Shown here one piece after another: positions 22,244 to 64,000 of a DNA stretch of 64,000 nt. Source of the stretch: Hirudo medicinalis (Eukaryota; Annelida; Clitellata; Hirudinida; Hirudinidae); assembly GCA_011800805.1 (NCBI GenBank), contig MPNW01000035.1, positions 398,003-462,002 on the forward strand. The letters are read 5' to 3'. The notes under the pieces were generated by a model that saw nothing but the letters and a program-made list of their open reading frames with translations, did no database searches and had not been told where the DNA came from. A program made the translations under genes and the position numbers. Each line of letters opens with the position of its first letter. Positions within the stretch are counted from its first letter, which is position 1.

Positions 22244-22517
22244 TCACGTGACTCACGCATCTACCTTTTAGGAGGTAGGTGTCTCGCAAACTGTTAATTG
22301 CTAATTTTTGTCAACAACCAAATCATTTTACAGATAATACATTACGGGAACACAGAAAACAATATGACCGACAACAATATGGCCGCTATCACCATTTCTC
22401 AGACATGTTCTGACACCTGCCGACACCCACAATGTGGAAGTATAAAAGGCGGTCTCTTACGCGGTTCGTGCGTTTGCTCGATGCTTTGTCCTTGTTCAGT
22501 CGGTCATTCATTGACAG
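22244..22517 (+). promoter_or_regulatory. TATA promoter and 5' exon, probably of the peptide gene
   Basis: TATAAAAG at 22441-22448 is followed about 70 bases later by an ideal donor (GACAG/GTAAGTG after 22517). Upstream, an E-box CACGTG at 22245-22250 overlaps an AP-1-type TGACTCA at 22249-22255. The exon contains an ATG near 22480 whose frame, if spliced to 26712, runs in phase into the prepropeptide frame. Assigning this promoter to that gene across a 4.2-kb intron is inference; no other gene lies between. Confidence 0.5.
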
Positions 22518-25500: not shown

Positions 25501-26711
25501 CTTAAATGAATTGTCGAACTGTCTTAATAACGAATATTAAGCTGTTTCACTGCATGCAAAATATTGTATTGACTTTGAATTTAATCAAACTGTAAGAGTA
25601 ATAACATGAACAATGTCTGTGGTTTTTATTTGTAACCTTCTGGTCCACTGCCGAGAAATTATATGCCCCGGGAGATTTTAGGTCAATTTCATCGCCAGAT
25701 GGCAAAAATCCAGAATTCTGACGTAAGATTATGATATCCTGAAAGTCTCTGCTAAATTACTTAGATTTTTTTGAGAGAAAACATTTTTAATGAAGTAATT
25801 TTCTGAATTGATCCCTCGTGTAACTCAGACCAGAAAAGACCCTACGTTTCTGCCAGATATTCTCATATGTTTTGCAATTCCTTTGTGGGAGGAAATTTTT
25901 ATTCGATGAAACATCATTGATGAGGAACTTTTATGAGTTTTTCGAACCAATCTTTCTAGTCGTGTTCATGAGAATTGATATCTAAATGCAGAAACTGAAA
26001 TGAGAACGGAATGGGGTTGAATTTACTGATCTCAAAGAATGAACATCTGTTTAGATATTTGTTTCGAAAATCATAAAAGTATTCACTCTCCAATTAAACA
26101 ACCGAATGTCAAATTTAGTTTTTTTTTTAGAGAGAATAATGCGAGTTATTTCATAATGCGCAATTTGACTTCAATTGAGACGAATAAATCGATGGTTGTT
26201 AAAAAAATGTCTTCATCTCGAATGCAAAAGTGTAAAAGAAATTTAAAAGTGTTCCAGCATCAACAACTGCTTTTTGTAAGAAAAAAATTGAAAAATCACT
26301 ACAATTAAAAAGAGTTCTGAAAACTAGTAGTAAATGAATTTTAAAGATTAAAGATTACCAAACCGACTGACAAAAAACAGTTCTCCCAAGAAATGTTTTC
26401 TGCAAAAATTACTTGCCATCTCAGCACTTCCAGCACGTTACGAGTTTAATCTAATTATGGAGACTTGAAATGTCACAAGAATAAAACTCTCCAGTTCCAC
26501 AACCACTCGAAATTAATCCCTGCAATGGTGAAACACTGAATCATCATGGAAGATAACTTTGAATAACTTCAAAGCGATATTCCCGTGAGAGGACCCCGTG
26601 AATATTCTAGGAGTTCCAATGAAATTTATGGGGATCTATAAATAATTATATCTTCATCGCTTAAATAATAAATCAGCGAGCAATAAATTCTCATCTGTTA
26701 TTATTCATCAG
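22518..26711 (+). other. Putative long first intron, no recognised content
   Basis: About 4.2 kb between the strong donor at 22518 and the acceptor ending at 26711 (TTATTCATCAG). No coding exon, RNA gene or mobile element could be supported here. Short frames such as 23533-23733 and 26039-26308 lack any family resemblance. Confidence 0.4.
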
Positions 26712-26722
26712 GATGCAAAAAG

Positions 26723-29658
26723 ATGCCTAGGACCAACAAGTTAAGTCTGCTTTTGATACTCATCGTGGCTTGTTGTCAATCTTGGGCTGCTGAATCTCTG
26801 AGGAAGTCGAGAAAGACATCGGTAAGGGAAGGTTAAAGTCGAAATATAATTTAACAGCAAACTTTTATTATAAAATAAATAAATAAATATATTGAGAATT
26901 TCTTAATTTCACTTTCAAAGTAGAATGACGCACTCAATTTGCTAGGCAAAACAAATTAACATAAAAGTAAGCAAAGAAAAATAAAGTAAAGTCAAATAAA
27001 AGAGTTTATATGCTAGTTTTGTGGTTGCAGGATAAGAAATTGAGTTCTCATTTAATTTTAATAATCAGTATTTTTTATTTGTGGTGCTTGTGGATTTTAT
27101 AGGCAGTCAAGAAAAATAATTATTTTAAAATTATAATAAAAATCGCTAATCAGGATTTTAATAAAAAAATATTAAAATTTTACTCGTTTTTAAATAAATC
27201 GTTTTCTTTTTACAAAATTTTCATCGCTGAATGATCGCAATAACTGCCTGACGAAATGTTTCGTAAATACTTTAAGATACTTTAAGATTATGATTCTTTC
27301 AACTCTGAAAATTTAATTCATTACACTTTTTCGTTCTACAGGTCTACGACGGACTGCAAGATTTTGGATACAGCAATCTCGATGATTCGAGTCTGAGGAG
27401 GTTGGAGCACTACCTGAAGATGAGGGACGTGGAGAAACGTCTGGAAAGATTGAAACTCAAGAACTTCATTCAGGTTGGTAACCACGAAAGTTGCCGAACT
27501 TGTTTTACTTTGTGAATAGAGAGGTGAGGCAACAAGGCATGTTTGTATTGTTTCCTAAATGAAATGAATTGCCATCCTAGGGGTGTCGAGAAGTTATCAC
27601 AGATAGATCCTAGGTTTTCATTGAGACATGCAAGACAAACAAAGCTCTCCGGCAGAATTAGTTTTCCAACGGACGCCACTATTTCTGCTCACAATTGATT
27701 ATGAATACTCTGGGTGAAGCAAGCTTTCTACTAGGAAAAAACATTTTTATTCAAATAAAGCGGATCGATAAAATGTAAACATTTAAATAAACACAACAGA
27801 CTAACTTTGAACAAACACTAAACAAAGCGAGCATATGACTGAATTACTTGCTTCATGAAACATAAAAAGTTGGGATGTACCGGATAGCAAAATTTACCGC
27901 ATATCGGATACCAGGATAGTTCCGGATAATTCACCTATTGGATACCGGATTTAACGGTCCATGTGGTTAGGATTTTTTTTACAATCAAAGAAACTCATGT
28001 TTTACATCTTCATATTTTTATTTTATTAATAAAAACTAACTTAAAAAAAAACTACATATTTATTCATGAATCCTGATGATTTTAAGAAATATCCGGTACA
28101 TGCCTAATAAAAACATGTAAGTATCATTTACTTGGTGCAATTTACGACAAAGGAAGCGCTTTCATTGTTCAGCAAATATACATAAAACCGCATAACCATA
28201 TAATTAATGTATTGATTAACTTAATAAAAGGTTTAAACAGTAAAACAGCAAAAAATGAACAATTCATGACACCAGCTACAATGTAGCACATCAGCAATTT
28301 ATTAATCTGTCTCTTCCTGGAAGAGAACAATTATTTCTAAAGATTATAAGTAGCAAATCAGTCCAACGGATTAATTACTGCCGAAAAATAGCCCTGAAAC
28401 TAAATGATGAAATCGACTTAGTCCGAATAGACGGATTGAGTTAATCCAGACTTGAACGCCTCAACAATAATCTGCATGGTAAATGAAGAATCGCTCTCTC
28501 GCTAAAAACGATTTCTGAGGTGAATATCTGCGTTGGAGTTGAAAGCATCATAAATGAAGCCATTCGCGACCTTCACTATCAGCGGTTGAGATCGATGTAA
28601 TTACTTCATTAAAAAATGAGAGAATTGAAAAAAGTGTTGGGATGATTAGCAATCGGCATCGTCCTACCTGTGAGTAACCAACGGATTATGAGCCCTGAAG
28701 GCGTTACTCAAGCGCTGAGAAAGTGCTAAAGCTTTTAATTCCTTCGAGAAAGTTCCCTGAAAGTTAACAGGATGACACATTTTCAATAATAACACCAGTC
28801 AAACGGCTTATTTTGCTAAGATAAAATATGCCAGCATAAAATGTATTGTTTCAACATTTGAAGAATAACATGTTGTTTTTTTTTCGAAATATTTGTAAAA
28901 AACGTTTTAAAATTTACATATTGATCACATTTCCGAAGTGAATTAATAAAGCGGTTAGAAAGGAATTGATAATCTTGGTAATCTCTCGCATTTCGCGTTG
29001 GTCTTCGTGTTACAGACGGCTTCATCCATCAACGGAAGTGTTTGTTGATGTTTCTTAGATGGCCTGTCACATCACATCTTGAAAAGCATTCAGCTTTTGA
29101 TAACCATTGCTAAAAGTGTTTCTTCCATTCTTTTCCCGAAGTCTCTTGTGTTTCTTTTTGCTTAATAAATAAATTCGTTAGGCATATTTTTGTTGTTAAA
29201 AATTTAATATCAGTCATGGGTTTCGATACTAGATGTACATGCATAGGCGGTAACAAATTTAATCCAACACATTGCAAGCAATTATTTCGGAAATCTGTTG
29301 ATCCCCAAGAATGTTACTTCAGAATTTGGATGATGGAGCTCTAGATCCAAAAGATCAATTTTCTGTTGACCAAGAGAGCTACCTAGATGAAGAAATAGGC
29401 AGAGACGATGACGACGATTATGAGATGGATGACAGGGAACTCTCCAACGAGTCAGTCAAAAAACTGCGAGGATCGCTGGAGAAGAGAGGTCGTTGGCAGG
29501 GATTTTGTTTCCGGAGAACTCGAAGTGGAAGAAGACTGCCTTACATTTGCTGGAGAGATTGTGAGAATTTCATTTCCCATAATATTATATAATATAATTT
29601 TATATCAATATTTGTAATTTACTGGGAATATCCAACCATTCACTGATTTCTTTCAGGA
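26723..29658 (+). CDS. Secreted prepropeptide with C-terminal disulfide-ring peptide
   Basis: Three coding exons join in phase 0: 26712-26821, 27342-27473 and 29323-29560. A T/GA split stop is completed by the exon starting at 29657. The product is 156 aa. Residues 1-23 are a signal peptide (MPRTNKLSLLLILIVACCQS). Residues 34-77 are a charged helical segment (LKMRDVEKRLERLKLK). Residues 78-130 are strongly acidic (DDDDDYEMDD). Residues 131-132 are a Lys-Arg site preceded by SLE. The last 24 residues are cationic and contain the only two cysteines after the signal peptide: CFRRTRSGRRLPYICW. The layout (signal, acidic spacer, dibasic cleavage, cyclic C-terminus) fits a neuropeptide hormone or a beta-hairpin antimicrobial peptide. 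If the last donor is not used, the frame runs to TAA at 29589 and adds ten residues including a third Cys. A possible poly(A) signal (AATAAA) lies near 29731. No known family is recognised. Confidence 0.65.
27872..28104. mobile_element. Short inverted-repeat element (hAT-like MITE)
   Basis: The left end GGGATGTACCGGATA (27872-27886) is inverted at the right end TATCCGGTACATGCC (28090-28104), 14 of 15 matching. Interior copies of the same CGGATA motif occur. The 233-bp size and coding-free interior suit a non-autonomous DNA element inside an intron of the peptide gene. No target duplication is evident. Confidence 0.65.
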
Positions 29659-29759
29659 ATCAGCTGAAAACTTGCTCGTTTGAACAATCATTTTACAATC
29701 AATTTCAGCGCATTTATGAAACATGTTTTTAATAAATAAATAAGTAAATAAATAATGCA

Positions 29760-34689: not shown

Positions 34690-34990
34690 TCCAGGTATCC
34701 TTTTCGGAAGAATTTCCAGGCTTCAATTATGAAAGTTCTTTCAACTTCATAACAGTTAAATGTTGTTTTACATTATGGTATGCCTGCTATGTCAGAGTCT
34801 CCCAAACATTTTCTATAGAATTTAAGTTCGGAGAACTCGCTGGCCGTTCCATGACACTCACATTTTGCCATCGTCTCCCTTGCATTATATTCGGCGCAAA
34901 AGATGGATAGTAAGGTTGTAGTTTGGCGGTTATCTCGAACAGTTTGATGTAATTTGATATGTACGATCTTCTAATGGTTTTCCTATGTTC
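34690..34990 (-). mobile_element. Tc1/mariner transposase remnant
   Basis: The reverse complement includes SVMERPASSPNLNSIENVWE, the degraded form of the Tc1 block PAxSPDLNPIENLW that carries the third catalytic acidic residue. Neighbouring frames are broken and neither terminus is found. Confidence 0.7.
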
Positions 34991-35106
34991 ACCTCTCCAT
35001 CCAAAATTTTGAGGACACCCCAGGACCACCGGGGATGTTAATCCAAGTGTGACGGCCTCGTCGCATTGATTTGTGATATATTTCGTTCCCCTGACTTTTG
35101 CAAATG

Positions 35107-35205
35107 TAATAAGAATCTCTTACCACGGACCGACAGGGAATCATCAGAGGAGTGCTCTCCTCACCGAAACTTTTCCTCCAAACCCTTTGGGTGTACCCGC
35201 ACCCA
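35107..35205 (-). mobile_element. RLE-type non-LTR element, 3' tail copy C
   Basis: The reverse complement carries ACTCCTCTGATGATTCCCTG, then TCGGTCCGTGGTA, the same terminal segment as the copies at 15.95-16.06 kb and 16.52-16.64 kb. Only the last 100 bases or so are present. Confidence 0.75.
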
Positions 35206-41500: not shown

Positions 41501-41920
41501 TCAAATCGAGACATAAAACAGCCATTATGGCCCAGTTTAATCCAAATAATCCATAACATGTCCCACATTTTCAAAAGGTGGGCAAAACAAGCTGGAAGAG
41601 ATTAAAGGTATCTTGGAAAAATTCCCTAAAGAAAATTATTACACCCTGAGGGAACTACTCAGACACCTTCTTAAGTAAGTAAAAATATAGAAAATTGGAA
41701 GCATGCCACCTTATTTTGCTTTTCGTTTTGTAGAGTTGAAGAGCATTCAACCGAGAACCGCATGAGGATCACAAACCTCGCAATAGTTTTCGGTCCTACC
41801 CTATTGTGGCCAAAAGAATCCCATGATTTTGAGAGCCTCGCTCAATCTCTGATGTTGAGAGGGCAGTTAGTGGAGTACCTACTACAGAATTTTGATGCAC
41901 TGATTGCACCAGATCACTGA
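38568..41920 (+). CDS. Rho GTPase-activating protein, SH3-WW-PH-RhoGAP (ARHGAP12/27 type)
   Basis: About twelve exons. The start ATG at 38568 follows a TTTTTATAG acceptor. Domain order: SH3 (TEVKLLYDFKYI...YYVPVHYVEQF), Pro-rich linker, WW (GYEMYRDDISGQVYYYN, ESSW), PH (CGFLKTLKLTDNGGKLK, then KYWNLAFAVLEGTFLYFFKD, RVKSDLVVDLQNSFVLK, HSDSIDVAQQWFDVL), a basic LKEKLKSWLLRRPTQDSL link and RhoGAP (DPIFGS, VDGIYRVNGNAAEIQKLRF with the Arg finger, ALKLFFRELREPLFPF, NRMRITNLAIVFGPTLLWP). Stop TGA at 41918. The family turns off Rac/Cdc42-type GTPases at membranes and junctions. The first WW tryptophan is Tyr here. It converges on ARCN1. Confidence 0.92.
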
Positions 41921-48672: not shown

Positions 48673-49889
48673 ATGGCTGCTGGGAGAATCTTCAGCGCAA
48701 TTGGAAAACTTGGAGTGGGATTGGCTGTTGCTGGAAGTTTGGCTAGCTCAGCTCTCTATAATGGTTAGGTGTGCATAATTCGTTCTTCAGACGGGCAAAT
48801 GTTTAAAAACTAATTTTTATAGTGGATGGAGGACACAGGGCGGTCATCTTTGATAGATTTGCTGGTGTGAGACAACAAGTTGTTGGAGAGGGAACCCATT
48901 TTATTATACCATGGGTTCAGAAGCCCATTATTTTTGACATTAGGTCCAAGCCAAGGAGTGTACCTACAATCACAGGAAGCAAAGGTAAAGCTGTGATTTG
49001 AATGTACAGCTATTGATTTTCTATATGCCTTCACATTGCATTTTTTTTATATAAGTTTATCATATTGGTTTGTTTTTATGTCTTTGTAAATTGCTGAACC
49101 ACTTGCTAATAGTTTATTAGTTGATGCAATAAAACATGGCAAGAATTGTTGTCTAATTTCAAAGGTTCATAAAGTGTGCATGGTCCATTTTACAGATTTG
49201 CAGAATGTTAATATCACTCTGAGGATTTTGTTTCGACCTCTGGCTGAGCGTCTTCCCCAAATATTTACAAGCCTTGGTTCTGATTATGATGAAAGAGTGC
49301 TGCCTTCAATTGTTAATGAAGTCCTTAAGGCTGTTGTGGTTGGTATTGTTATGATGTTTGTTAACCTTGAGAAGTTAAATAATTGTTAATTATTTCCTAC
49401 CTAGGCACAATATGATGCCAGTGAACTTATCACTCAAAGAGAGGTAGTTTCCCAAAAGGTCAATGAGGAGCTTACGAACAGGGCTGCTCAGTTTGGAATT
49501 ATCCTTGATGATATTTCTCTGACTCATTTGACATTTGGACGTGAATTTACTGAAGCTGTTGAAATGAAACAGGTTGCCCAGCAAGATGCTGAGAGAGCTA
49601 GATACATTGTCGAAAAGGTGCTCTTATCCTTTGTTATTGGTGATTGGATACATATTTATAACTGTCCTATTTTTAGGAGGAGCAATTAAAATTGGCTGCC
49701 ATCATTAGAGCTGAGGGAGACTCCATTGCTGCAGACTTGTTGGCCAAGGCATTTGCTGAATCTGGAGAAGGTCTTGTTGAATTGAGAAAGATTGAAGCTG
49801 CAGAAGATATTGCTGCCCAATTGTCTCAATCACCAAATGTGACATATCTTCCTCAAGGCCAGCAGACATTGTTGTCCCTGCCACATTAA
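48673..49889 (+). CDS. PHB1: Prohibitin 1
   Basis: Exons join as [140 protein letters not shown] and [16 protein letters not shown], ending at TAA 49887. This matches prohibitin-1 from end to end: an N-terminal hydrophobic anchor, the PHB/SPFH domain and a coiled coil. The protein forms ring complexes with PHB2 in the mitochondrial inner membrane and regulates m-AAA protease and cristae. Start and length match the family and no defects were seen. Confidence 0.97.
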
Positions 49890-55462: not shown

Positions 55463-58400
55463 TCACATCCATTCTTCCTCTGCTGATTGAGTCTGTGAAG
55501 ATGGCCCATTACTGGATCCATTTTCTGCTTCATTTTGAGGTCTCCTTACTGGAAACTGTGTACAGAATTTCTATTATCCACTGACAACACAAGTTCAATT
55601 GAGCTCACTTACCCTGCCATTTCTTCTGCCATCAACCCCCCTAGAGCAGAATTCTCGATTCACAGGGCCACGACCACCTGTGGCCGCAGTCTCCAACCAT
55701 TTTGGAACTTCCTGTTGCGTCTGGAATATCAACAGAAAAATTGCTGGAATTGTGATATTTGTTTAAGTTGGCAGTAAAGACGTCACCTCGCCGAGAACTC
55801 TGACAAGGGGTCCGGCCAGATGTAAGTCATCTTGAAACGAAAAGAAGCTTAGAGCTCTGCCCGAATTCCCACAACGAGCCGTTCGGCCTATGCGATGAAT
55901 GTACTCGTCGACATCTTTTGGTAGATCGTAATTTATGACGTGCTTTATGCCTTGTATGTCGAGTCCTCTTGCTGCCACCGAAGTTGCCATGAGTATCTCA
56001 GCTTTACCTGGGAATCGTGGATCCAATGAGTCATTCTAAAAGCCTAAGGCATTTGTCGACTACTCACCCTCACGAAAGAATTTGATGGCCTCCTCTCTTT
56101 CCTTTTGATTCAGGTCTCTGTAGGAAAAAGTGAAAAGTTACTCTTGCAAAGGAAACATAATTTCGGGGAACACGAACCCGTGTATTGCTGTTATTTTTCT
56201 GTCTAAAAAGTCCCCTAAAGTTATGCATAATGCATCAGCATTCCTCTTGGTTTGAAAAAATACAATAACTTTCTCAGAACCTGTAAAGTTGTTGAAACTT
56301 ATGCAAAAGCACAATCACTCAGAATCTAGACAAAAATAGGAGCTCACCGATTTCTTTTAACACTTCAATGAGCTTCTCCTTTTTATTCTTGTTCTCAACC
56401 TTCCAAACAACCTGTTTTATGTTTTCATTTGCCTGGCCAAGGGTTCCAACAGTAACAAACAGGTAATCTCTTAAGATGTCAAATGCCAGTTTTTGAATTT
56501 CAAGTGGAAAAGTAGCACTAAATAAGAGAGTTTGTCTGTTATTATTTTGCAATCCTCCACACAATGACACCAAATTGACCACTTCATCATGAAATCCCAA
56601 GTCAAGCATTCTATCGGCCTCATCCAAAATGAGGGACTTGACAAATGACAAATCAATCTGAATATGAGAATGAAGATTAGCTAGTGATAGTTTCATTTGT
56701 AATGTCTTGACTAAGTCAAAAATAAATGTTAAGGAGATGTGCTAACATTATCTGAGGCTTTAAAATTGTACCTACATAGGCCACGTTACATATTGTTCCA
56801 ATGATCATGTTGCATTCATTATTTAATCATGTACTTTTGTGATTCCATTAATTCAAAGATGGCAACACAAAATTTGAATATAACCTTCTTATTCCTCACA
56901 AAGTCTTGAAGCCTTCCGACGGTGCCCACGACAATCGCAGCACCCTTTAGCTGCCTCATCTGATAAATCCTATCAAGTCCTCCATAGACGGGTACAGATT
57001 TAATGATAGTTCCATGTGAGAATTTTCTTATTTCTACGTGAATTTGTCGAGCTAGCTCTCTGGTAGGAGCAATTATGAGAACTGCGGGACTGGGGATATC
57101 ACTGTTTGCACAATCCCTCAAGACATTCTCATTGTTCACAAGGTCTGACAGAACTGGCACCAAAAATGCAGCCTTAAATGAATTTAAAATAAACATCAAA
57201 ACAACTCCAGAGCAACGTCTAAAAGCAGTTTGTGAGCCTACGGTTTTTCCCGAACCAGTCTGAGCCGAGGCCATCATGTCTCTTTTCTCCATTATGATAG
57301 GGATAGACCACTTCTGAACAGGAGTGAGAGTGGTATAGCCTAGCTTCTTGATGTTATCCAAAATTCTTGGAGTCAAATTTGCATCCTGAAACCTATAGGC
57401 AAAAAAGTGAATCATTTGGTTAATGCTAATAATTCAAAATAATACTACAAAATGTAGATAACATTAATGGCTTTCATTTAAACCGCTGAGGCTAATAATG
57501 TCTTCTGTTGATGACATGCCTAACTTCCTAACATGCCCACCTCTGAATGGGATCTTTAGGAGCATTTGGCCCAGAAACTTCAACTTTGCAGTTGGTCAAC
57601 TTATCAAAATGTTCACCCTTTTCCAATGCTTCAAAGAACTTCTCATCACTCTCATCAATATCAGGCGGAATGTATGGAGCATGAACAGGCTTGTCAATTG
57701 CTGATAATTTCAAATTTTTCAGTAACAACATTCAAATATCATCAAAGCTTCCTTTTACCTTTCAAGAAGTCCCTTGTATTGTCTTGTGCAGTCACACCTT
57801 TAGTATGTGATGCCCCTTCAGAGTGGTCAAATGAAGTTTTCTTTGGCAATCTGTTTGTCTGATTATTGAAACTCTCAATTTTATCAAAAGTAGTTTTGTT
57901 GCTCCTCAAATTTTCTGGATTGTTGTTGTACTTATTGCTGTTACTAATAATTTTGTCTCCATGTATTACAGATCTCCTGACATTCATCTGAGAATCTTGT
58001 CTGCGATTGATGTTCTCTGAATGACCTTCCTCCCTGTTGACCAAATGCTTAATTTGTGATTCAAAGAAACTTTCCCCTCTCTTCAAATCTTCATTTGTAT
58101 GCTTTGAATAAAGATGTCCTTTGCTGTCTTCTCTATCACCATCATCCCCTTGTTCTCGTGAGTCACAACTACTGAATACTATGTTATGTATTGTGGAGTG
58201 ATCCTGCAATTTGTTATCTTCAGCACAACCTTTCCATTCATTTACCAATGGACTCTCAGGATTATTGAATCTTTCATCCATTAAATTCTCTTCATTATGC
58301 ATCAGGTTTTCTTTTTCTTCCTTTTCACTATTCAGTGTCACTGATGATTTGATGGAATCATCAAGAGAATCATTTAAAATTTCATCAGCCAAACTGTCAT

Positions 58401-61747: not shown

Positions 61748-64000
61748 TCAGGGACATTTTTTTTCAACACATCCCTTTCCACCTTCGTCATATTCCTGTT
61801 TTGATATCCACATTTGCTGGAAAGCCCCCTGGAAATTTTATGAAAATAAATACTTGTCCATAACTCTAGTAGAGCTTAATCTCACCAGCGATCCTAGTAT
61901 CGAGCCGCCGATCCAGCTGCTAAACTTTCTTTCGGCAGGAACAGGGGATGATATCATCTTCAATTTCATGCTCTGTTATAAAGCAAAAATATATATAATA
62001 ACAGACAAATAAAACAAATTAGCTTTAGATCAGTCTGAATTTTTCAAGAAAGTTTCATCAAAATAAGCAAGAAATGATCTCAATCAAAGGTATGATTTGT
62101 GTGAGTCCATTGGAGTTAAGAGAATCACTAGATGTTTATTGAAACAACAATTGGCTATAGAACTCACAGGTGGTGTTTTAGTACCCAAATCTCTGTTGAG
62201 GCGTTCAATGAACCCATTGAGGAGTGTATTTCCACCCACGACTATGACACTGTTATATAAATTCTGAATAGAAAAACGTTTCACTACTATGCTGCCCTCT
62301 CTCATTTTTGTTCTTAAATCTACTGAGAAATTATAATGAAACTCACAGGTTTTATATCAATGTCACAGAATCCAACACTGGTTGTGATAATATGGCTCAT
62401 GCTCAGCATGGTACTTCCTCCTTGAATGTCCTGAAGCATGAAGTGTTTTACAAACATCAAATTAATGATAATTTCTTGAACCCCATAAAACTTGTGAATT
62501 AACCATACTTTAATCAGTGAAGGATCAAACAGTCCCTCAGGGATTCGAAATCTTTCTGGTCCAAATACTTGATTATATCCAGTTGAGAATTCATAATTAT
62601 GTGTAGGCATATTTTCAATAATGGTCTCATCATAAGGAGAATCAGACACCTGCAGAGTGGTGGCTGCAAAGTCCCTCAAACCATCCTTCAACATGAAGTT
62701 ATTGAACGATTTTGTCAACTCCGGCAAAATTTTTTTCTTCCACCGGGGTGATTGCCCCTCTCCCACGACTTCCTTTTCAGCAATTGCAAATGGTGGCACA
62801 ATTTCAATATTCATCTCTTCCATCAACTTCTTGCATTCAAGAAGAATAAAGTCACCAGCCAATGGTGATTTCACGATTCCTATAAAATATTGGGTGTTAA
62901 AATTAAAAAATACAAAATCGACAAGCTGCAACCTTGTTGAATGACATATCCATCGTAAACTGGGACAGCAGATGTTAAGGTAGCTCCACTATCTAGCACC
63001 AAGCCTGTAGACCTTCCATTAGCAAATCTAAAATCAGGAGATTATTGCTTAGAATGCACAGTAAAATGAATTCACTGAAACATCATAAAAATCCTAGAAC
63101 AAGATTGTTTTGTTCCTTATCACATACAAATGTGATATTTTAGATGCCTGATTATTTAAGTTGATTTCTAAATTTTTAACACTTTAAAAATTTCCACTTT
63201 GTCTATTACTTTGTACCATCTTTTTGTAAATTTTGTTCTGAACACTAGATCATTTTGTTTTAACCGAACGTTATCATCGGCCTATGGGCCCTTCTATTTG
63301 CAAATCAATTTATACTTCTGTTTTTTGTGAACAGAATAGAAATTTGGTTTGGTGGTCCAATTGACCAATCAGTTTATGTACTAAAATAAATAAAAATAAA
63401 ACAATTTGAAAGCTTAAACTTACGCAGATAAAACTGCATTCTTTGCCAAGAAGAAGGCTGGTATATTATATTTCTCAAACATCAATTCTGTAAGTTTCTC
63501 CCTTTTTGGTCTCATATTCCACTTAGAAAGAAATAGTATATAAAGCAGAGGCAAAAGAAACTAATTAAAAAAAAAACAAATCTTACAGCTGGTTCAGACA
63601 TAAGAACAGGTTGTAACTCTGAGGGTGATCGAACATAATTTTCATAAATATAATCCAGTTGCCTTTCAAACAAGTCCCAGTCTTCAACTAAGCATTTAAT
63701 AATTATTAAACGTTTTATAATATTATTTTAATAAAAATCAAACATTTTTATCAAACAAGATACTAACTCATTCCTTCTTTGAGACACGTCGTCATTTCCA
63801 TACCTTTCCTTGGAACTTTAATATTAACTGTGTCAAAATGAAATTTCTTCTCTGATTTAACATTGTTGGAAGTAGCATCAGTGCTTGGGGTTACATCTTC
63901 TGATTCTACAAACCCCACAGCAGTAGGGAAATCAGCCTGATAATTTTAAAGATAAATATTTATTAATGAATGTAATCATAATGAGGCAAACTCGATAATC
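61748..64000 (-). CDS. Actin-like protein 6 (BAF53), 5' end beyond window
   Basis: Minus-strand exons encode (N to C) ADFPTAVGF near 63925-63940, [76 protein letters not shown] (phosphate loop), [51 protein letters not shown] and [20 protein letters not shown] to TGA 61748. The unbroken match to ACTL6A/B continues to the C-terminus. The subunit belongs to BAF (SWI/SNF), INO80 and TIP60 remodellers. The start exon lies past 64000. The acidic insert [12 protein letters not shown] near 63870-63900 is longer than I expect for the family. Confidence 0.92.

What the first reader, a model, noticed from the sequence alone, without database searches (positions are those of the whole stretch)
26723..29658. 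Undescribed secreted precursor with a cationic, disulfide-ring C-terminal peptide
The exon phases (33 codons, 44 codons, 79 codons plus one base) join without a break into a 156-residue precursor: signal peptide, charged helix, acidic spacer, Lys-Arg, then a 24-residue peptide with two Cys enclosing 13 residues (CFRRTRSGRRLPYICW). The acidic spacer next to a basic peptide is typical of stored antimicrobial peptides (anionic pro-region). A single long ring with a hinge (RSGR) recalls beta-hairpin peptides of the arenicin kind, but the BRICHOS pro-domain is absent. The C-W ending recalls the MCH-type ring, although the loop is longer (13 versus 8). I cannot place it in a known family.
Basis: partly seen in the sequence, partly recalled or inferred. 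Interest (0 to 1): 0.75.

Follow-up and report, generated by a model that had tools for sequence, protein, structure and literature searches.

The report
Second whitnin-type neuropeptide gene, leech
A medicinal-leech gene appears to encode a small secreted ring-shaped peptide, nearly the same as the ring of the known annelid brain peptide whitnin but from a second precursor lacking whitnin's other conserved peptide, so it is most likely a nerve signal rather than an antimicrobial.

Summary
In detail: coding exons 26723-26821, 27342-27473, 29323-29560 and a last exon completing the stop join into a 156-residue secreted precursor ending KR-GRWQGFCFRRTRSGRRLPYICWRD. The interpretation (undescribed, antimicrobial-like, unplaceable) mostly does not. 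The same genome holds a paralogue whose hand-spliced product matches a Hirudo medicinalis 'neuron-specific protein' at 118 of 119 aligned residues, so the window is from a medicinal leech or close kin. That protein groups with Platynereis whitnin and Urechis whitnin-2. Both leech genes have coding-intron phases 0, 0, 1. The ring is nearly frozen across the 151 of 155 sequences that match a ring pattern. In abalone ganglia masses fitting the corresponding ring peptide, disulfide-bonded, were seen (PMC3434067, passages). What is distinctive: the window gene lacks the WL[D/E]T (PKYMDT, proctolin-like) motif found in 123 of 149 ring-bearing fetched relatives, and ends CWRD; the 7 fetched relatives with Arg after the ring Trp also lack the motif. 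Best reading: a neuropeptide precursor of a second whitnin lineage that delivers only the ring. Transcription, disulfide and receptor are not shown.

The parts
22441..22517 (+). candidate core promoter (TATAAAAG at 22441-22448) and non-coding first exon ending at a GTAAGT donor (22518)
   Evidence: seen in the sequence; start of transcription not known; inference
26712..26821 (+). exon with the start codon (coding 26723-26821, 33 codons): signal sequence and first pro-residues
27342..27473 (+). exon of 44 codons: charged, helix-like pro-region at the place where ordinary whitnin has WL[D/E]T; the motif is absent here
29323..29560 (+). exon of 79 codons plus one base: acidic spacer, Lys-Arg and ring peptide
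29482..29487 (+). Lys-Arg cleavage site
   Evidence: cleavage inferred
29488..29559 (+). 24-residue ring peptide; Cys codons at 29506-29508 and 29548-29550
   Evidence: conserved in relatives
29657..29736 (+). last exon: GA completes the stop codon with T29560; first polyadenylation-type signal AATAAA at 29731-29736
   Evidence: the same intron place in the paralogue; 3' end inferred

Best explanation
This is a neuropeptide precursor gene of a medicinal leech: a second, divergent paralogue of annelid whitnin. The precursor enters the secretory pathway, its two Cys close a ring that folds as a beta-hairpin, a prohormone convertase cuts after Lys-Arg, and the free-acid 24-mer GRWQGFCFRRTRSGRRLPYICWRD is released from neurons as a ligand, most likely of a G-protein-coupled receptor shared with or related to that of ordinary whitnin. 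Unlike ordinary whitnin it carries no WL[D/E]T (PKYMDT, proctolin-like) peptide, so the ring is its only conserved product. Shown: gene structure in DNA, homology and paralogy of the ring and of the intron phases, conservation. Predicted: hairpin. Inferred: transcription, cleavage, disulfide, neuronal release, receptor class.
For: Paralogue in the same genome with 67% identity over the ring stretch that equals a Hirudo 'neuron-specific protein' at 118 of 119 aligned residues. Named whitnins of Platynereis and Urechis in the same profile search. Coding-intron phases 0, 0, 1 in both leech genes, the last intron after one base of the third codon past the ring Trp in both. Columns R3, F9, P19, Y20, I21 never vary in 151 ring-bearing sequences. 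Over Lys-Arg plus the 24-mer the two leech genes compare as 14 identical, 5 synonymous and 7 changed codons of 26, four of the seven Arg to Lys. Passages: masses fitting the disulfide-bonded ring peptide in abalone ganglia (PMC3434067); whitnin expressed in Platynereis forebrain (PMC6377233). Hairpin predicted.
Against: No transcript of this gene was seen. The WL[D/E]T part of ordinary whitnin is absent, and the homology of exon 3 rests on position and phase, not on residues. There is no amidation glycine, whereas the mollusc rings are reported as amidated. The ring holds internal Arg-Arg pairs that a convertase might cut. A receptor is unknown. Trees carry long branches, with a warning that long branches meet.
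Confidence: 0.83

Rival explanations
1. A stored antimicrobial peptide: anionic pro-region, cationic beta-hairpin freed by cleavage, acting on microbial membranes; recruited from a whitnin gene or alike by convergence.
For: Peptide charge +6, spacer charge -12; predicted disulfide-size hairpin; the resemblance to arenicin is recalled.
Against: The ring is much more conserved than the pro-region, unlike fast-changing antimicrobial peptides (general knowledge); relatives are named neuropeptides and were found in ganglia or brain (PMC3434067, PMC6377233, passages). Ordinary whitnins, with almost the same ring, do not share the long acidic spacer. Activity itself was not tested, and a dual role is not excluded.
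Confidence: 0.07
2. A decaying or silent duplicate: homologous, but no longer expressed.
For: No transcript seen; long branch of this gene in the trees.
Against: Open frames, GT-AG junctions and a stop at the conserved intron place; in P0001, a near relative, the ring is unchanged and exon 4 differs at 4 of 79 residues; a Helobdella protein of similar make exists (P0041).
Confidence: 0.06
3. A member of another ring family: melanin-concentrating hormone, arenicin or CCWamide.
For: C-W ending and an Arg-rich ring (recalled resemblance).
Confidence: 0.02

Closest known systems
Hirudo medicinalis 'neuron-specific protein' (P91737; P0074), i.e. the leech whitnin, encoded by the paralogue in G000 C297
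   Same: Signal sequence, Lys-Arg, 13-residue ring, intron phases 0, 0, 1
   Different: Has RATWLETR and an ELVY helix, ring residues H, K, K, K, F at variable places, CWKG-EGENDDK tail and a GC-AG last intron; the window gene has neither motif, a long acidic spacer and CWRD
Platynereis whitnin (P0049), Urechis whitnin-2 (P0063), Capitella CAPTEDRAFT_21488 (P0054)
   Same: Ring and dibasic site
   Different: All three carry ATWL[D/E]TR; tails CWKG..
Mollusc whitnin (SPTR/PKYMDT/ERYM precursor)
   Same: C-terminal two-Cys peptide with PY.C close to its end (Haliotis and scallop peptides in PMC3434067 and PMC5996578, passages; alignment)
   Different: 12 residues between Cys, reported amidated; precursor also carries PKYMDT; only printed peptides were compared, no mollusc precursor was fetched
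Helobdella HELRODRAFT_161449 (P0041) and unnamed P0141, P0144, P0145, P0147
   Same: Ring followed by CWR[A/D/E], no WL[D/E]T motif; group with the window gene in the trees (P0041 and P0144 only in the first)
   Different: Pro-regions hardly alignable; Phe instead of Trp before QGFC in the four unnamed ones; the P0041 model lacks a signal sequence; support moderate and branches long

Membership tests
whitnin, ring (ERYM-type) part | C-terminal two-Cys peptide after a dibasic site, with G-F-C-F ... PYICW | tested here: met
whitnin, ring (ERYM-type) part | gene structure as in the leech whitnin gene (coding-intron phases 0, 0, 1; last intron just after the ring) | tested here: met
   compared with one gene only
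whitnin, PKYMDT (proctolin-like) part | WL[D/E]T or PKYMDT peptide between signal sequence and ring | tested here: not met
   absent from the window gene; present in 123 of 149 ring-bearing fetched proteins; hence filed as a ring paralogue, not as a complete whitnin
whitnin | neuronal expression and processing to the free disulfide ring peptide | not testable with these tools
   known for relatives from passages only (PMC3434067, PMC6377233)
arenicin-type antimicrobial | BRICHOS pro-domain | tested here: not met
   Pfam scan at E up to 1: only a sub-threshold FAM75 match
antimicrobial peptide in general | kills or inhibits microbes | not testable with these tools
   bench test proposed
melanin-concentrating hormone | ring with 8 residues between Cys (recalled) | tested here: not met
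   13 residues between Cys
CCWamide / agatoxin-like peptide | eight conserved Cys | tested here: not met
   two Cys in the mature peptide; definition from PMC8557429 passage
proctolin | RYLPT-type pentapeptide (recalled) | tested here: not met
   not present in the 156-residue sequence (by reading)

The most novel reading that the evidence does not exclude
Annelids have an old second whitnin lineage whose precursors dropped (or never had) the proctolin-like peptide and deliver only the ring, in leeches as a free acid ending CWRD. The ring, not the PKYMDT-type peptide, would then be the core ligand of whitnin signalling, with a receptor of its own, against the current label 'whitnin = proctolin orthologue'.
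Probability: 0.4. Interest if true: 0.55.

Novelty: new variant of a known kind. Interest (0 to 1): 0.4.

Why it matters
Whitnin expression has been tied to spawning in abalone (PMC3434067) and its protein level to the moon-phase clock in Platynereis (PMC6377233), yet which of its peptides is the ligand is unsettled, and in 2021 the spiralian proctolin receptor had no known ligand (PMC8557429; passages of all three). A gene that seems to keep only the ring separates the two candidates within one animal that has identifiable neurons, so the question becomes directly testable: two leech ring peptides, one WLETR peptide, one receptor panel.

Tried and rejected
Antimicrobial, MCH, arenicin, CCWamide and proctolin readings were considered and set aside (see rivals and membership). 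Literature: the literal strings LPYICW, GFCFRR, GFCFKK, SGRRLPY, SGRFLPY gave 0 papers; PYICW and RWQGFC gave 3 counted and 1 listed, unrelated. Searches for CCWamide, annelid/leech precursors, whitnin (12 papers, several unrelated), PKYMDT (10 papers), proctolin receptor and Hirudo neuropeptides were read as listings; passages were read in PMC8557429, PMC3890597, PMC6377233, PMC3434067, PMC6425005, PMC7737342, PMC4200219, PMC4408573, PMC5996578, PMC5747525 and PMC12343078; no paper was read whole. In what I saw there was no whitnin receptor and no report of this gene. Not excluded: Veenstra's 2011 Capitella/Helobdella survey (seen only in a reference list) or the source of the name 'whitnin-1' may already list a second gene; most subscription papers are not held.

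Computations that led nowhere: Pfam gave nothing above cut-off for the 7 proteins and the 8, despite a source name 'Somatostatin/Cortistatin C-term..' on two relatives (P0054, P0124); PDB by sequence gave 6 weak unrelated matches; Foldseek on the exon-4 model gave 107 matches with E up to 10 and none at or below 0.001, uninformative for a lone hairpin; Rfam at gathering score and tRNA scans of the window were empty.

Limits of the counts: one search used a narrow motif and left 16 of 133 rows without it, three of them (P0089, P0114, P0119) ordinary whitnins with a changed letter; one search used a wider one: 125 with and 26 without of 151, one of the 125 (P0148) false; one search used a third: 123 with and 26 without of 149 fetched proteins. 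Of the 26, P0006, P0139, P0140, P0142 and P0150 are odd or cut models, and others begin inside the gene, so absence is safest in rows that look full-length by eye (P0025, P0035-P0037, P0042, P0134, P0141, P0144, P0145, P0147, P0148 and the window gene). The ring pattern left out 4 of 155: P0128, which has a ring with other letters before it, and P0151-P0153, which hold no ring. All relatives were found through ring likeness, so ring conservation is biased upward. One search reported 170 proteins and listed 120; one search scored only the 7990 candidates sharing most words. Trees used 48 and 29 chosen rows; the group that I had named beforehand (window gene with the KGS-tail rows) was set off from the CWRDAE rows with only 52/19 support, the drawn tree instead placing the window gene with the latter.

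Full report
What is there. Reading the DNA and joining exons by script (rechecked) gives 26723-26821 (33 codons), 27342-27473 (44 codons), 29323-29560 (79 codons plus one base) and a last exon from 29657 whose first two bases complete T|GA. Each junction has GT and AG. The product is 156 residues: a hydrophobic signal sequence (by eye), a charged helix-like stretch, an acidic spacer, Lys-Arg and GRWQGFCFRRTRSGRRLPYICWRD, net charge +6.

Which animal. The window lies in an unnamed 133-Mb assembly, G000. A second ring-encoding exon sits on contig C297, and a search with that paralogue's ring stretch found only these two places at E up to 10. Splicing the second gene by hand (L005 3659-3754, 4001-4105, 4849-4984, 5277-5299) gives 119 residues, of which 118 equal P0074, named 'Neuron-specific protein ... 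Hirudo medicinalis'; P0074 has two more Val in a Val run. Its last intron starts with GC, and the end of the Hirudo protein (EGENDDK) fits that splice. So the genome is Hirudo or close kin, an inference from one protein.

Family. The first search gave 43 proteins at E up to 10, the weakest at 3.8e-5; one is Helobdella HELRODRAFT_161449. A profile search gave 170 (120 listed), among them Platynereis whitnin, Urechis whitnin-2, Capitella CAPTEDRAFT_21488, Ridgeia and Helobdella HELRODRAFT_126833 and the Hirudo protein. All 133 sequences then in hand (132 fetched plus the window gene) have 13 residues between the ring cysteines. After the third search, 151 of 155 sequences (153 fetched, two leech genes) matched a stricter ring pattern; in these, pattern columns R3, F9, P19, Y20 and I21 do not vary, besides the letters that the pattern itself fixes, while columns 10-14 and 17-18 do.

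Paralogy. The window gene and leech whitnin share coding-intron phases 0, 0, 1, with the last intron after one base of the third codon past the ring Trp. Relatives hint at the same place: P0025 ends ICWKGSNF, while P0024, with the same preceding 50-odd residues, reads on as ICWKGC..., as expected if a T|GT codon marks an intron edge (inference). Over Lys-Arg plus the 24-mer, 26 codons compare as 14 identical, 5 synonymous and 7 changed, four of these Arg to Lys. P0001, a 4.9-Mb contig's open frame, has the same ring and 4 changes in the 79 residues of exon 4.

What is different. Ordinary annelid whitnins carry ATWL[D/E]TR followed by a helix. A scallop paper lists PKYMDT, ELGDMMQELVYNALKELVSKamide and RRHLSYCLRRSGPNFVPYPCYKYGamide from one precursor (PMC5996578, passage); side by side, PKYMDT stands at the ATWLDT place, ELVY.A..EL matches the annelid helix, and the ring matches (my comparison; for the ring). 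The window gene has no such motif. It is present in 123 of 149 ring-bearing fetched proteins and absent in 26; all 7 fetched proteins with Arg right after the ring Trp, as in the window gene, lack it. Among the 26, 13 end KGS.., KGC.. or KG and form what looks like another motif-less group, which includes P0148's tail type as well; 5 are odd or cut models. In a 48-row tree the window gene groups with the Helobdella row P0041 and four unnamed rows (94/80), away from leech whitnin. In a 29-row tree without P0041 its group has 96/93 support, and a clade of the window gene with leech and Helobdella whitnin is disfavoured (p-AU 0.0138). Branches are long, the program warns of long branches meeting, and the tested clade was named after the first tree, so this is suggestive and not proof.

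How it works. In Haliotis ganglia, masses fitting the ring peptide were seen by MALDI in bonded and unbonded forms, and whitnin expression follows the spawning cycle; the same paper notes a whitnin homologue in Hirudo medicinalis (PMC3434067, passages). In Platynereis whitnin is expressed in the medial forebrain and its protein was picked out as changing with circalunar phase (PMC6377233, passages). That paper calls whitnin the mollusc orthologue of proctolin; PMC8557429 (passages) says that the ligand of the spiralian proctolin receptor is unknown and that PKYMDT had no counterpart outside molluscs. For the leech gene I infer secretion from neurons, convertase cutting at Lys-Arg and action on a G-protein-coupled receptor. 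AlphaFold2 on exon 4 with 43 rows gave mean pLDDT 62.8 and pTM 0.28, but 95 and 88 for the last two blocks, with strands 58-65 and 71-78 in exon-4 numbering, a hairpin with its turn at TRSGR. The end RD has no amidation glycine, unlike the mollusc rings.

Against. No transcript of this gene was seen; exon-3 homology to ordinary whitnin is by position, not residues; the window gene fails the PKYMDT part of the family definition. It is therefore filed as a whitnin-ring paralogue, a variant, and not as a complete whitnin. I found no report of it in the searches named under Tried and rejected, which cover open-licence papers only.

Verdict. Interest is moderate: the kind is known, but a precursor that keeps only the ring lets one ask which whitnin product is the signal.

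Noticed in passing
window 26713-26730 +: If the acceptor at 26710-26711 is used, the transcript has an upstream ATG (MQKDA, stop at 26730) that overlaps the main start at 26723 in another frame: a possible brake on translation.
   Followed up: partly
L005 4984-5277: The last intron of the ordinary leech whitnin gene seems to have a GC-AG border, at the place where the window gene has GT-AG.
   Followed up: yes
P0025, P0035-P0037, P0042, P0133, P0134: Unnamed annelid-like precursors with the same ring, KGSNF/KGSD. tails and no WL[D/E]T motif: perhaps a third whitnin group.
   Followed up: partly
P0150: A ring (KRHRWQGFCFAKTRSGRFLPYICW) in an otherwise unlike 177-residue protein with further basic residues after it.
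   Followed up: no
window 41675-41917 +, 49405-49686 +, 56322-57433 -, 62323-62988 -: Exons of ordinary genes near by: RhoGAP, Band 7 (prohibitin-like), DEAD helicase and actin-like (Pfam).
   Followed up: partly
window 34790-35119 -: Weak DDE_3 match (E 0.0027, below the family cut-off), probably a transposon remnant.
   Followed up: no
P0054, P0124: UniRef names these annelid whitnins 'Somatostatin/Cortistatin C-term..', but the Pfam copy used here gives no match for either; the label looks unsafe.
   Followed up: partly
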